From contig NZ_MJEI01000090.1 of NCBI RefSeq assembly GCF_002095395.1, positions 1 to 64,000 on the forward strand: DNA of 64,000 nucleotides, given 5' to 3'. Positions 45,341-60,963 of this stretch are shown in pieces. The first letter of the stretch is position 1, and each line of letters opens with the position of its first letter. The stretch is from Williamsia sp. 1135. GTDB lineage: Bacteria > Actinomycetota > Actinomycetes > Mycobacteriales > Mycobacteriaceae. The notes beneath the pieces are model-generated. The model was not told where the DNA came from and made no database searches. It saw only the letters and a program-made list of their open reading frames with translations. The position numbers and the translations under genes were made by a program.

Positions 45341-45480
45341 CGGTGAGTATTCCCAGCTAGCGGCGTCCTCCTTCGGAGGTGAACTGGCGCAATGAGCTCG
45401 GCATCTGGGGGTTGCACTCCAGTCATCAGCGACCGCTTGAGTGGTAGACGCAGCTCACAAACTCAATGGAGGGGCATACG
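45341..45480 (+). promoter_or_regulatory. Structured leader before the flavin reductase operon
   Basis: The leader can fold into a hairpin CCTCC-TTC-GGAGG (45367-45379), whose right arm is itself a strong Shine-Dalgarno sequence (GGAGGTGA, 45375-45382). Four short segments, CCAG (45353), CTGG (45384), CTGG (45405) and CCAG (45419), allow mutually exclusive pairings, and GTGAG near 45343 can pair with CTCAC near 45453. It does not match the core of the FMN, SAM, cobalamin or TPP riboswitches that I know. Switching by a ligand or by translation of the short ORF is an inference. Confidence 0.4.
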
Positions 45481-45496
45481 ATGCAGGTCACCATAG
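45392..45496 (+). CDS. Possible 34-codon upstream ORF (leader peptide)
   Basis: An ATG nine bases after GGAGGTGA opens a 34-codon frame that ends 16 bases inside the flavin reductase gene. The peptide is Ser- and Arg-rich with cysteines at codons 8 and 31. Its Shine-Dalgarno sequence lies in a hairpin, and its end overlaps the next start, so its translation could affect reductase expression. There is no family evidence, and it may be chance. Confidence 0.3.
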   Translation: MSSASGGCTPVISDRLSGRRSSQTQWRGIRCRSP

Positions 45497-46008
45497 TGGC
45501 GGGCAACCCTAAGCCGCGGTCGCGAACGCTGAAGGCAGCTGGACTGGTCGCGGAGTCTCTGCGGGCCGGCGATTCTGATCAGCCGATCGAGACGGTCGAC
45601 GTCATCACGCTCGGCGCCGGCCTATTGGGGTGGGGTGACGCCGCGGTGGCCGACGCTGTGTCGACCGTGGCCTCCTCGGACCTGGTGGTTTTCGCGAGTC
45701 CGACGTTCAAGGCGACATACACCGGGGTCCTCAAGCTCTTCCTCGATCAGTTCGCCGGCGGCGAAGGTCTTCGGGACGTGGTGGCGGTACCGCTGATGCT
45801 GGGCGCCGGCCCCGCCCATGCGATGGCACCCGACCTCCTGCTCAAACCTGTACTCGCCGAACTGGGTGCGGCCTGTCCCGCGCCTGGTCTCTACCTGCTG
45901 GACAGCACATACACCACCGATGACCGCATCACCGACTACGCGCACAGATGGGGCCCGGTGATACGGACCTGCACGAGTTCGGTCTCGGTCCGAACGGAGA
46001 CATCATGA
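45481..46008 (+). CDS. NAD(P)H-dependent FMN reductase (SsuE/MsuE-like)
   Basis: The 175-residue flavodoxin-fold protein has the phosphate-binding loop [11 protein letters not shown] and the segment [21 protein letters not shown], shortened here to [13 protein letters not shown], typical of SsuE-type reductases. It would supply reduced FMN to the monooxygenases downstream. The ATG at 45481 has GGAGGGG nearby; an ATG at 45466 overlaps that site and was rejected. It ends in an ATGA overlap with the next gene. Confidence 0.88.
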
Positions 46009-46505
46009 CACCGACCACCACACCCACTGAAGCCCGAGTCTTGCGAGATGCGTTCGGGCACTTCCCCAGTGGCGTCATCGCCATCTGTGCCGTCGTCGAC
46101 GGCATCCGGACCGGACTGGCAGCCAGCACGTTCGTGCCGGTCTCGCTGGATCCGCCGCTGGTGGCCTTCTGCGTCCAGAACAGTTCGACGACGTGGCCAC
46201 GGCTCCGCACCGCCACGAATTTGGGTATCAGCGTGCTGGGGGAGGCGCATGACGCCGCCGCCAAGGTCCTCGCCGCCAAGACCGGCGACCGGTTCGCGGG
46301 TCTGGTCACCGAGACCACCGAAGCGGGCGCCGTCTTCATCGAGGGCACCAGCGTGTGGCTCGACACCGCCGTCGTCGAGGAGGTCCCGGCCGGCGACCAC
46401 GCCATCGTGGTCTTGTCGGTGAACGGACTCGAGGTCTTCGACGATGTCAGGCCGATCGTGTTCCACCGCAGCACGTTCTCGCGTCTCGAGCAGAAATCCG
46501 CATGA
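46005..46505 (+). CDS. Flavin reductase, split-barrel (HpaC-like) family
   Basis: The 166-residue protein belongs to the FMN-binding split-barrel flavin reductases. Typical stretches are [37 protein letters not shown] and the [15 protein letters not shown] strand. These enzymes pass diffusible FADH2 or FMNH2 to two-component monooxygenases. It is unrelated in fold to the SsuE-like gene just upstream, so the cluster has two kinds of reductase. GGAGA lies six bases before the ATG. Confidence 0.87.
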
Positions 46506-47731
46506 GTCGCGACGGCATCGGCCGGGCGCTCGAATCGTTGCGCACCGGTGCTCCCGTGCTGGTGACGGACGATCACGACCGCGAGAACGAGGGCGACGTC
46601 GTCCTGGCCGCCTCGACCTCGACGCCCGAGTGGGTGGCCTGGACGGTCCGCAACACGTCGGGCCTGTTGTGTGCACCGATGTCTGCCGAGCGCGCGGACG
46701 CCCTCGCGTTACCTCTCATGGTGACCGACAACCGCGATCCGCGACGGACCGCCTACACGGTCACGGTCGATGCGGGGTCCGGCGTCACCACCGGCATCAG
46801 CGCCGCCGATCGCAGTCGCACGCTCAACGTGCTGGGTGCCCCGGATTCCGTTGCGGCGGACCTGATCCGCCCCGGTCACGTGCTGCCGCTGCGGGCCCGT
46901 CCGGGTGGCGTCCTCGAGCGCGCCGGCCACACCGAGGCGGCAGTCGATCTGTGCAGGCTCGCCGGCGTCGAACCCGTTGGCGCGATAGCCGAGCTGGTCT
47001 CCGAAGACGGTGCCATGATGCGGATGCCGGAGATCCGCGAGCTGGGCGTCCGAAAAGGACTACCGGTACTTACGATTGCTGAACTCATCCGATATCGCGA
47101 ACTCCACCCGGAGGAGCTCCCCACCACGTCGGCACCACGCGTTCGCCGGGGTGCGAAGACAACGATCGACACCAAGTACGGTCGGCTCACCGTCATCGGT
47201 TACGAGGACCTCCAGACGGGCGCTGAACACGTCGCGCTGACACGTGGCGAACCCGGGCCGGGCGCGATGGTTCGTGTCCACTCCGAGTGTGTGACCGGCG
47301 AGTCGTTTCATTCGATGCGTTGTGAGTGCGGGCCACAGTTGGACGTGGCACTCGGTCGGATCGCCACCGAGGGGGGCGTCGTCGTCTACCTCCGCGGGCA
47401 TGAGGGCCGGGGCATCGGACTGCTGAAGAAGTTGGCCGCCTATCGCCTTCAGGACGGTGGTATGGATACGGTGCAGGCCAATCTCGAACTCGACGAGCCT
47501 GCTGACGGCCGCGAATACGGTGCGGCGGCGGGCATCTTGCATGATCTCGGTGTGGAGTCTGTCCGGTTGCTCACCAATAATCCGGATAAGGTCTCCGGAC
47601 TCGAGCGAGGTGGAATCTCGGTGGTTCGACGGGTGCCCCTGATCGTCGGGGTGTCCCCGCCCAACGTCCGGTATCTCGAGACGAAGGTGAAAAGAATGGG
47701 TCATCTGCTGCCGCTCCGCGAATTATCTTGA
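46502..47731 (+). CDS. ribBA: Bifunctional DHBP synthase / GTP cyclohydrolase II
   Basis: The 409-residue protein makes both early precursors of riboflavin. The DHBP synthase half (about 1-200) has [14 protein letters not shown] and the metal histidine in [10 protein letters not shown]. The GTP cyclohydrolase II half has the zinc ligands in [17 protein letters not shown], and [12 protein letters not shown] and [10 protein letters not shown] with the catalytic Tyr/Arg. All expected residues appear intact, so it should be active. It overlaps the flavin reductase stop as ATGA and is followed by a terminator, making it the last gene of a three-gene flavin unit. Confidence 0.93.
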
Positions 47732-60083: not shown

Positions 60084-60100
60084 CCCGGACCGGTCACAGG

Positions 60101-60138
60101 CCGGGCCGCCGACGAGCATCAGCTCGTGGGCGGCCCGG
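60101..60138 (+). terminator. Terminator after the importer operon
   Basis: CCGGGCCGCC (60101-60110) pairs exactly with GGCGGCCCGG (60129-60138), and inside it ACGAGC pairs with GCTCGT around an ATCA loop. TTTCC follows. It begins 18 bases after the binding-protein stop codon and lies between that gene and the convergent gntR, so it may serve both. Confidence 0.85.
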
Positions 60139-60216
60139 TTTCCTTGCACTGCAATGCCGGCGCGACGGCGCCGCCATGCGTTCCAGGGTTGCGGCTGACC
60201 TGAATCCGGATCTGTG

Positions 60217-60963
60217 TCAGCGAGCCGGCGAGCGAAACGAAACCATGTCCGCCCGGTAGTGCGCATAGGCGTACTCGTGGACGTTTCCGTCGACATCCGA
60301 GAGCACCTGATCCCGAACCAGAAGCACAGCACCCGGCGCGATGTTCAGAATCCGGGCGGTGCGCTCATCGGCTCCGACGGCGTCGATGCACGTCTCCATC
60401 CGCCCGAACGGACGGCTGTAGACGGTCTCGAAGGTCTGCGCGATGCCGTCCACGTCGGGATTGTGGACCGGGGGATGCGCGTTCGGATTGATCTGGAACG
60501 CGACGAGCGTACCGATCGGCACCCCGCCGTTGCTGATCACGTAGTCGATCATCCGCAAACTGTCACTGTCCGTCGGCATCCGGCTACGGATCAGGTGATG
60601 CGCCGGGATGGCGTGATCTCCGATCATCCGGTATTCGAGGGGTCCGCTCGACGGGTTACCGATGATGTCCTCGACGGGCAACTGAAGCGGTCTTCCACGC
60701 ACGACGGTCCCCATCCGGCGCTGCCTGCTCACGAGACCTTCGTCTGCCAGCATCTGCAATGCCGATCGGACAGCCGCGCGCGTGGAGTCCAAGTTCTCGA
60801 TCAGCGATTCTTCGCTCAGTGACTCACCTGCATTCAGGACACCGCTTTTGATCGACGAGCGAAGCAGCTGATGTACGACACGCGCAGACCGTTGCCGGGT
60901 CCCGGCCGATCCGCCGACCGAGCGGGGGTGACGGGTGGGTGCAAGGTGGGATAGCTGTGTCAT
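60217..60963 (-). CDS. GntR-family (HutC-type, UTRA domain) regulator
   Basis: The 248-residue protein has a winged helix N-terminal domain (VVHQLLRSSIKSGVLNAGE, ALQMLADEGLVSRQRRMGT) and a C-terminal UTRA-like ligand domain (residues about 105-245, ending LLVRDQVLSDVDGNVHEYA). HutC-type regulators are usually released from DNA by a small ligand related to the pathway. It converges on the monooxygenase/importer operon and is the most likely local regulator. GGAAC precedes the ATG at 60963. Confidence 0.85.
   Translation of the reverse strand: MTQLSHLAPTRHPRSVGGSAGTRQRSARVVHQLLRSSIKSGVLNAGESLSEESLIENLDSTRAAVRSALQMLADEGLVSRQRRMGTVVRGRPLQLPVEDIIGNPSSGPLEYRMIGDHAIPAHHLIRSRMPTDSDSLRMIDYVISNGGVPIGTLVAFQINPNAHPPVHNPDVDGIAQTFETVYSRPFGRMETCIDAVGADERTARILNIAPGAVLLVRDQVLSDVDGNVHEYAYAHYRADMVSFRSPAR

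What the first reader, a model, noticed from the sequence alone, without database searches (positions are those of the whole stretch)
45341..60963. Self-contained flavin monooxygenase and importer system of unknown substrate
Seen: two flavin reductases, RibBA, four NtaA-family monooxygenases, an MFS-like transporter, a complete Dpp-type ABC importer with lipoprotein receptor, and a GntR/HutC regulator, bounded by terminators. Known: nitrilotriacetate and EDTA degraders pair an NtaA/EmoA enzyme with an FMN reductase, and the EDTA cluster also has a Dpp-like importer. Inferred: this is an uptake and oxidative cleavage pathway, but with four enzymes and dedicated cofactor synthesis it is more elaborate than any set I know. 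Candidate substrates are aminopolycarboxylates, N-heterocycles or organosulfur compounds.
Basis: partly seen in the sequence, partly recalled or inferred. Interest (0 to 1): 0.82.

Follow-up and report, generated by a model that had tools for sequence, protein, structure and literature searches.

The report
Inserted flavin-oxygenase uptake island
A bacterium carries an inserted block of 14 genes that appears to import an unknown compound and break it with oxygen in two flavin-driven steps, and closely similar blocks turn up in a few distant relatives, so it looks like a portable toolkit for using an unidentified nutrient.

Summary
The block is a 15,905-bp insertion (45316-61220) flanked by a 9-bp direct repeat. 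It splits a glycosyltransferase-dnaX pair that is adjacent in sister genomes. Closely similar gene sets occur in Nocardia, Rhodococcus and Pseudonocardia: conserved as a unit, but rare. The four NtaA/DmoA-type monooxygenases fall into two types. M2/M3 keep a Trp beside the oxygen-pocket Asn; M1/M4 replace it with an aliphatic residue. All seven core sets keep at least one of each. I therefore propose import, then two sequential FMNH2-dependent oxygenations that strip a heteroatom (S or N). The flavin module (FMN reductase, HpaC-type reductase, RibBA) is optional and separable. The chelator idea is weak: EDTA monooxygenase scored lowest of the full-length NtaA-type PDB chains for the three proteins searched, and the EDTA receptor EppA matches the island receptor at only 25 bits. 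The substrate is unknown. It is a new variant of a known kind: a mobile member of a wider, mainly actinobacterial class of multi-monooxygenase plus Dpp-importer clusters. No structure could be predicted.

The parts
45307..45315 (.). left copy of the 9-bp direct repeat CCGCGGCCG; insertion boundary
   Evidence: sister genome G001 has one copy at the uninterrupted site
45481..46008 (+). FMNred: SsuE-like FMN reductase (ORF open from 45466)
   Evidence: PF03358 68 bits; TIGR03567 80.6 bits, below its cut-off 164
46005..46505 (+). HpaC/HsaB-type flavin reductase
   Evidence: PF01613 104 bits
46502..47731 (+). RibBA, second copy in the genome; 55% identical to the other copy
   Evidence: PF00926 and PF00925
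47746..47787 (+). terminator-like hairpin between RibBA and M1
   Evidence: -35.2 kcal/mol, z -4.8
47893..47909 (+). 17-bp leader box GCGAAATCAACTCGTGA, 89 bp before M1; candidate promoter or operator
   Evidence: same pattern only before the operon in L034 and L036 among the fetched loci, not in L033 or L035; found after the fact by comparing those sequences
47999..49315 (+). M1, NtaA/DmoA-type monooxygenase, type II (GVN)
   Evidence: TIGR03860 374.7 bits (run from one codon earlier)
49348..50655 (+). M2, NtaA/DmoA-type monooxygenase, type I (GWN)
   Evidence: TIGR03860 424.5 bits
50645..51907 (+). MFS transporter, the most variable part, sometimes absent
   Evidence: PF07690 34.6 bits; 34-48% identity in L033, L034, L036, no hit in L035 and L039
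51991..53295 (+). M3, NtaA/DmoA-type monooxygenase, type I; 77% identical to M2
53318..54631 (+). M4, NtaA/DmoA-type monooxygenase, type II (GIN)
   Evidence: TIGR03860 389 bits
54701..55582 (+). DppD-type ABC ATPase
   Evidence: PF00005, PF08352
55579..56400 (+). DppF-type ABC ATPase
   Evidence: PF00005
56397..57443 (+). DppB-type permease
   Evidence: PF00528, PF19300
57449..58363 (+). DppC-type permease
   Evidence: PF00528
58410..60083 (+). lipoprotein receptor, SBP_bac_5 family
   Evidence: 236 bits; lipobox Cys36 invariant
60098..60141 (+). terminator-like hairpin after the receptor gene
   Evidence: -43 kcal/mol, z -5.4
60217..60963 (-). GntR/UTRA (HutC subfamily) regulator
   Evidence: PF00392 52.6 bits, PF07702 40.1 bits
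61061..61077 (.). perfect palindrome GTACTC-N5-GAGTAC upstream of the regulator; candidate operator, not conserved in relatives
   Evidence: only perfect copy in the window; not found in the 71 related loci
61212..61220 (.). right copy of the 9-bp direct repeat; insertion boundary

Best explanation
The block is a mobile nutrient-scavenging island. Shown: it is inserted as a unit between a glycosyltransferase gene and dnaX, and closely similar sets sit in other actinobacteria. Inferred: the lipoprotein receptor and DppBCDF importer take up a small polar organic molecule carrying S or N. The two flavin reductases supply free FMNH2 and the extra RibBA enlarges the FMN pool. A type I monooxygenase (M2 or M3) and a type II monooxygenase (M1 or M4) act in sequence, through a flavin peroxide probably at N5 as proposed for DszA, CmoJ and RutA, and cleave carbon-heteroatom bonds. 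The released sulfite or amine feeds housekeeping metabolism, and the MFS protein, where present, may export what remains. The GntR/UTRA protein represses the units until the substrate or a product appears. Sulfur scavenging is slightly favoured over nitrogen.
For: Insertion: window edges against the uninterrupted site in G001 and G002. Unit: L033, L034, L035, L036 and L039 keep monooxygenases, importer, receptor and a GntR homolog, with best matches to M2, M3 and M4 of 75-88%. Among 71 related loci, the 35 with two or more such genes carry a Dpp-type importer in 27 (1 of 36 for single-gene loci), RibBA in 10 (0 of 36) and a GntR homolog in 13 (0 of 36). Two types: M1-M4 each group with counterparts from other islands; Trp in 11 of 11 type I and an aliphatic residue in 15 of 15 type II rows at 60% identity or more; each of seven core sets holds both. 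Active site: of 12 DszA FMN/O2-pocket positions named in PMC11134501 (passages) 10 were examined by script, and 8 are identical in all four proteins. The 14 genes fill the insert; the other ORFs of 100 aa or more overlap them, so there is no room for a ring-cleaving enzyme, hydrolase or dehydrogenase of that size, which fits scavenging better than carbon growth. The same site in G006 holds a 2-aminoethylphosphonate cassette. Dimethyl-sulfide monooxygenase is the top PDB match for all three M proteins searched.
Against: No expression, growth or enzyme data. DmoA, LadA, DszA, YtnJ and HcbA1 score within a fairly narrow band, so the family does not fix the substrate, and LadA's own assigned activity could not be reproduced (PMC12449030, abstract and passages). 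The paralogs could act in parallel on different substrates rather than in sequence; the sequential idea rests on co-occurrence and one residue. Five further loci with a 60% hit (L038, L040, L050, L084, L086) hold only one type at that identity, and among rows below 60% the split is looser (10 of 24 type-II-nearest rows have Trp). Of the DszA positions, F56 is kept in 2 of 4, F246 in 0 of 4, and Leu230 reads S/A/N/N (by eye). RibBA of the island type is missing from 4 of 8 genomes searched. The single-gene comparison loci are mostly proteobacterial, so lineage and gene context are partly confounded. A RutA-like gene next to the related L050 cluster points to nitrogen, not sulfur.
Confidence: 0.5

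Rival explanations
1. Nitrogen version of the same scheme (overlaps with the best explanation, but sets its substrate): the island opens a cyclic amide, ureide or N-heterocycle, RutA-style, and the amine is the nutrient.
For: A RutA-like enzyme (TIGR03612 324 bits, cut-off 498; PDB RutA E 7e-82) directly follows the monooxygenases in the related Cryobacterium cluster L050. The island HpaC-type reductase matches RutF (TIGR03615, 51 bits, far below its cut-off of 255). Dpp-type importers often carry N-containing ligands (recalled).
Against: No RutA-like, hydrolase or amidase gene in the island itself; the M proteins match the dimethyl-sulfide enzyme best.
Confidence: 0.33
2. Aminopolycarboxylate pathway: an NTA/EDTA-like chelator is imported and N-dealkylated.
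For: Same gene kinds as the Chelativorans EDTA operon: monooxygenase with FMN reductase, and an ABC importer whose receptor is of the NikA/DppA/OppA superfamily (PMC7312458, passages).
Against: EmoA is the weakest full-length NtaA-type PDB match of the three M proteins searched (113-153 bits). EppA matches the receptor at 24.9 bits. No oxidase gene comparable to IdaA in the island.
Confidence: 0.07
3. Detoxification: the importer and oxygenases inactivate a toxic natural product, and the MFS protein exports the result.
For: MFS gene inside the operon; no assimilation genes; mobile and patchy distribution.
Against: A dedicated importer with receptor is odd for a poison; the MFS gene gives no hit in L035 and L039 and is the least conserved part.
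Confidence: 0.1
4. Tailoring cluster for a secondary metabolite (SnaA-like oxygenases).
For: NtaA-type enzymes occur in antibiotic clusters (recalled).
Against: No scaffold-building gene in the insert; an importer with lipoprotein receptor is present.
Confidence: 0.03

Closest known systems
EDTA operon of Chelativorans sp. BNC1 (EmoA, EmoB, Epp importer)
   Same: NtaA-family monooxygenase with FMN reductase, and an importer with a DppA-superfamily receptor, in one operon (PMC7312458, passages)
   Different: one monooxygenase (recalled), followed by the oxidase IdaA in the pathway; no RibBA (recalled); EmoA and EppA are among the weakest matches
4S desulfurization, DszABCD
   Same: FMNH2-dependent DszA-family enzyme; 2-hydroxybiphenyl is released while sulfur is kept (PMC8557817 passages); conserved FMN and O2 pocket
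   Different: DszC (acyl-CoA-dehydrogenase type, recalled) and the desulfinase DszB are not in the island; no Dpp importer in the dsz operon (recalled)
S-alkylcysteine salvage, CmoO/CmoJ (YtnJ) of Bacillus subtilis
   Same: two flavoenzymes in sequence, the second of this family (PMC10863075, passages); its operon carries a flavin gene, ribR (recalled)
   Different: acetylation and deacetylation steps have no gene here; amino-acid-type importer there (recalled)
ipp cluster of Rhodococcus sp. D-6
   Same: a RibB-like gene lies between oxygenase and reductase genes and is co-induced (PMC12442392, passages)
   Different: group D oxygenase acting on a phenol, with a dioxygenase in the same cluster
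SAR202 expansions of FMN/F420-dependent monooxygenases
   Same: many paralogs proposed to attack hard-to-use organic matter (PMC5395668, passages)
   Different: mostly predicted Baeyer-Villiger enzymes, an ancient expansion rather than a mobile island

Membership tests
NtaA/DmoA family FMN-dependent monooxygenases (TIGR03860) | score over the curated cut-off 279.7 | tested here: met
   375, 425, 440 and 389 bits
NtaA/DmoA family FMN-dependent monooxygenases (TIGR03860) | FMN and O2-pocket residues as in DszA | tested here: met
   of 12 positions named in PMC11134501, 10 examined: 8 identical in all four proteins, F56 in 2 of 4, F246 in 0 of 4; Leu230 differs by eye; Phe12 not examined
EDTA/NTA degradation system | closest monooxygenase relative is EmoA/NtaA | tested here: not met
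   EmoA 113-153 bits, weakest full-length NtaA-type entry for M1, M3 and M4; the NTA-type entry 3sdo 184-222 bits; M2 not searched
EDTA/NTA degradation system | EppA-like receptor | tested here: not met
   6WM6 24.9 bits; DppA 116 bits
EDTA/NTA degradation system | iminodiacetate oxidase IdaA for the next step (whether it lies in the EDTA operon was not checked) | tested here: not met
   no such ORF in the insert, judged from the ORF list; rest of the genome not searched
Dpp dipeptide importer | SBP_bac_5 receptor, two permeases, two ATPases | tested here: met
Dpp dipeptide importer | receptor anchors Arg355 and Asp408 of DppA (roles recalled) | tested here: not met
   aligned by eye: gap and Ile, in a weak alignment
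4S desulfurization (Dsz) | DszB desulfinase and DszC present | tested here: not met
   no such ORF in the insert; rest of the genome not searched
Rut pyrimidine pathway | RutA ortholog | tested here: not met
   59-72 bits against a cut-off of 498; RutA-like gene only in the related L050
Functional RibBA | both synthase and cyclohydrolase domains | tested here: met
   260 and 206 bits; activity not testable here
Genomic island | sharp insertion against an uninterrupted site in relatives | tested here: met
Genomic island | own integrase or transposase | tested here: not met
   none seen among the ORFs of 100 aa or more

The most novel reading that the evidence does not exclude
The island is one member of an undescribed, modular class of oxidative-scavenging islands, mainly actinobacterial. 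A shared flavin-supply module (FMN reductase, HpaC-type reductase and a distinct lineage of RibBA) is combined with exchangeable substrate modules, each an importer plus an obligate pair of type I and type II monooxygenases running a two-step C-S or C-N cleavage on a compound whose use by bacteria is not yet known.
Probability: 0.3. Interest if true: 0.7.

Novelty: new variant of a known kind. Interest (0 to 1): 0.5.

Why it matters
Two-component flavin monooxygenases of this family break bonds that few enzymes can, and their substrates are hard to predict. A bounded island that travels with its own importer, regulator and cofactor supply gives a complete transferable set: moving 16 kb into a laboratory host could reveal the substrate. 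The type I/type II pairing offers a simple sequence mark for a two-step reaction that can be tested directly, and the distinct RibBA lineage would be an example of a vitamin pathway copied to feed a free-cofactor reaction.

Tried and rejected
Rejected: that the set is a chance neighbourhood (and the insertion edges speak against it); an FMN riboswitch (no Rfam match at E<=1 in 45000-61400); a plasmid origin, as far as the plasmid collection shows (no plasmid place at 60% identity or more for M4 in 1255 records; none for the receptor at E 1e-60); a long N-terminal extension of M1 (the frame before 47999 covers leader DNA whose 17-bp box recurs in two relatives); the GTACTC palindrome as a conserved operator (not in the 71 related loci; its 3-mismatch matches are at chance level).

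Led nowhere: structure prediction of the receptor (11 calls: 55, 61, 67, 74, 78, 81, 84, 86, 90, 93, 97, all 'machine busy'), so no fold comparison was made. Paper searches (listings with titles and abstract openings) showed no description of this gene set. My homemade gene caller took some wrong-strand frames; counts were therefore made from tblastn. In one search hits covering under 35% of the query were dropped; hits under 300 residues were dropped and 10 rows gave no readable motif. MFS and GntR counts only see homologs of the island's own proteins; other MFS and GntR families in those loci are not counted. Several of the 71 loci are cut by contig ends, so counts of presence are lower bounds. 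A note of mine called a gene upstream of the L035 island 'hup'; that reading is not borne out and is withdrawn.
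Full report
What is there. The stretch holds 14 genes. A first plus-strand unit encodes an SsuE-like FMN reductase, an HpaC/HsaB-type flavin reductase and RibBA, with overlapping stop and start codons. A hairpin (-35.2 kcal/mol, z -4.8) follows it. A second unit runs M1, M2, MFS, M3, M4, DppD, DppF, DppB, DppC and the lipoprotein receptor, and is followed by a hairpin of -43 kcal/mol (z -5.4). 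A GntR/UTRA gene lies beyond, convergent. All four M proteins exceed the TIGR03860 cut-off. M2 and M3 are 77% identical; M1 and M4 are 44% and 43% identical to M2; M1 and M4 are 63% identical to each other.

It is an insertion. In sister genomes G001 and G002 the gene before the block (a DUF2029-like glycosyltransferase, 43958-45304, named by eye) is followed directly by dnaX (61247), read. In G001 the junction reads GACGCCGCGGCCGTCACAC. In the window the left edge reads GACGCCGCGGCCGAACAT and the right edge TGTCCGCGGCCGTCACAC, so the insert is 15,905 bp with the 9-bp sequence CCGCGGCCG at both ends. From match coordinates the same two genes lie about 40 to 340 bp apart in G003, G004, G005 and G007 (sequences not read), so 6 of 8 sister genomes have no room for the block. 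In G006 and G008 the gap is about 7.2 kb; I read G006 only, and it holds a 2-aminoethylphosphonate uptake and breakdown cassette (receptor, permease, TIGR03364 oxidoreductase and PhnX-like hydrolase over their cut-offs, PhnF- and PhnT-like proteins below theirs). The spot thus receives different nutrient cassettes. I saw no integrase or transposase ORF in the insert, so how it moves is unknown.

It is conserved as a unit but rare. The best M2 match in the 8 same-genus genomes is 38% identical. A pattern-based scan of 84,980 species genomes (480 stretches, 344 relatives, the best 80 kept as 71 loci; records very near the own genome may be left out) gave L033 (Rhodococcus sp. KRD197), L034 (Nocardia higoensis), L035 (Pseudonocardia oroxyli), L036 (Rhodococcus yunnanensis) and L039 (Pseudonocardia sp. 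CNS-139), which hold monooxygenases, the four importer subunits, receptor and GntR homolog; L037 (Nakamurella leprariae) holds M1 and M3 alone. In L039 the M3, M4 and receptor matches come in pieces, perhaps from assembly errors. L034 repeats the whole order except M3. Best-match identities in L033-L036 and L039 are 75-88% for M2, M3 and M4, 61-85% for M1 (the nearest paralog counts where the counterpart is missing), 71-77% for the receptor, 40-63% for GntR and 34-48% for MFS, which gives no hit in L035 and L039. The genes flanking the insertion in the window have no match in the stretches held for any of the 71 loci; in L035 leuCD-like genes lie some kilobases upstream and cofC- and plsC-like genes downstream (by eye). 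So, as far as the flanks are held, the sites differ. In 394 genomes of the class, M4 has a match at E<=1e-130 in 8, the own genome included, the best outside it being 60% identical.

A wider class. Of the 71 loci, 35 hold two or more such monooxygenases. Of these 27 have a Dpp-type importer, 15 the FMN reductase, 14 the HpaC-type reductase, 10 RibBA and 13 a GntR homolog. Of the 36 single-gene loci the numbers are 1, 2, 1, 0 and 0. The single-gene set is mostly proteobacterial, so lineage and gene context are partly confounded. The flavin module is shared across the class more closely than the rest: RibBA is 66-69% identical between the island and L047, L048 and L052, where the monooxygenases are 48-54% and the receptor 41-44%. 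Yet in 101 related genomes no other RibBA exceeds 58%, so the island RibBA looks like a distinct lineage. Not every cluster follows this: L043 has a RibBA at 50%. In 8 genomes reached through loci, 4 carry a RibBA of 67-72% (G479, G480, G482, G485) and 4 do not (G481, G483, G484, G486); an FMN reductase gene of 71-77% sits close to it in those 4. RibBA is therefore an optional partner.

Two types of monooxygenase. A tree of 106 proteins puts each of M1, M2, M3 and M4 with counterparts from other islands (quick method, no bootstrap), so the four copies are older than the spread of the island. Next to the invariant Asn of the oxygen pocket, type I (M2/M3) has Trp in 11 of 11 rows at 60% identity or more, and type II (M1/M4) has Ile, Val, Met, Leu or Ala in 15 of 15. 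DmoA, DszA, LadA, HcbA1 and YtnJ, as aligned, all have Trp. The seven core sets (window, L033, L034, L035, L036, L037, L039; those with a monooxygenase match of 75% or more) each hold at least one of each type. Five other loci (L038, L040, L050, L084, L086) have hits of 60-73% of one type only. Among rows below 60% the split is looser (10 of 24 type-II-nearest rows have Trp; 127 of 129 readable type-I-nearest rows do). I read the pairing as two consecutive reactions with extra copies for range; parallel reactions are not excluded.

Chemistry. Of 12 DszA positions said to bind FMN or line the O2 pocket (PMC11134501, passages), 10 were examined and 8 are kept in all four proteins, including Thr106 and Asn135; F56 is kept in 2 of 4, F246 in none, Leu230 differs by eye and Phe12 was not examined. 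CmoJ, of the same family, gives flavin N5-oxide (PMC10863075, passages). An N5-peroxide route that cuts a polarized C-S or C-N bond is thus the likely chemistry; this is inference. The same Thr/Asn pair is also present in LadA and DmoA, so it does not separate subfamilies.

Substrate. Bits against PDB chains are close together: for M3 DmoA 279, LadA 264, YtnJ 263, DszA 258, NTA-type 3sdo 222, HcbA1 213, riboflavin lyase 203, EmoA 153; M1 and M4 agree on DmoA first and EmoA last among full-length NtaA-type chains, leaving aside the short chain 7e36_A, which is labelled SsuD-like. The receptor is closest to DppA (116 bits) but lacks its dipeptide anchors in the alignment (anchors recalled), and it matches EppA at 24.9 bits. 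A RutA-like gene beside L050 speaks for nitrogen. Two proteome papers on dibenzothiophene as sulfur source list NtaA-type proteins: PMC8557817 assigns two 'nitrilotriacetate monooxygenase component A' proteins of Rhodococcus to sulfur acquisition, and PMC11852219 lists an NtaA/DmoA-family protein of Gordonia in a table of changed proteins. I saw passages and not the table captions, and other genes are concerned, so this is only a hint towards sulfur. I put sulfur a little ahead of nitrogen and chelators far behind.

Regulation. A 17-bp box, GCGAAAT(C/G)AANNNGTGA, lies 73-89 bp before the first gene of the monooxygenase operon in the window, L034 and L036 and nowhere else in 116 fetched loci (two of the four listed loci are copies of the window; L033 and L035 lack it). 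It was found by comparing these same sequences, so the count is not an independent test. A perfect palindrome GTACTC-N5-GAGTAC precedes the GntR gene but is not conserved. No Rfam family matches.

Limits. No expression or growth data, no structure, and no taxonomic name for the source genome. M2 was not compared with the PDB. The reading of single steps beyond the sequence is inference.

Noticed in passing
L110 (G006:C1:594500-602500), the site equivalent to window 45304-61247: In a sister genome the same gap between the glycosyltransferase gene and dnaX holds a 2-aminoethylphosphonate uptake and breakdown cassette, so the site is a repeat target for nutrient cassettes. G008 has a gap of the same size that was fetched but not read.
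   Followed up: partly
L042 (Nocardioides bruguierae), whole 15.6 kb: Eleven hits to NtaA-type monooxygenases stand in one row on one strand, some perhaps fused or broken, with no importer in the held stretch.
   Followed up: no
L050 12641-13675 (Cryobacterium arcticum): A RutA-like monooxygenase (TIGR03612 324 bits, below its cut-off of 498) directly follows the NtaA-type genes of a related cluster.
   Followed up: partly
L031 10166-13917 (G088, same order): The nearest relative of M2 among 100 related genomes (49%) sits beside an isopenicillin-N-synthase-like oxygenase gene, an unknown protein and an FMN-reductase-like gene (named by eye).
   Followed up: no
G001 C26, G002 C20, G007 C3 and C22, G008 C2: Several same-genus genomes carry one to three extra RibBA genes at 51-53% identity to the island copy. 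Their neighbourhoods were not read; the TIGR03860 genes listed on the same contigs are far away.
   Followed up: no
L059-L063, L065, L066, L068, L070, L073, L075, L087, L100 (Ancylobacter, Hansschlegelia, Methylopila and kin): A single NtaA-type gene of about 45-51% identity is conserved near an ABC importer of another kind, often with a flavin reductase, in Alphaproteobacteria.
   Followed up: no
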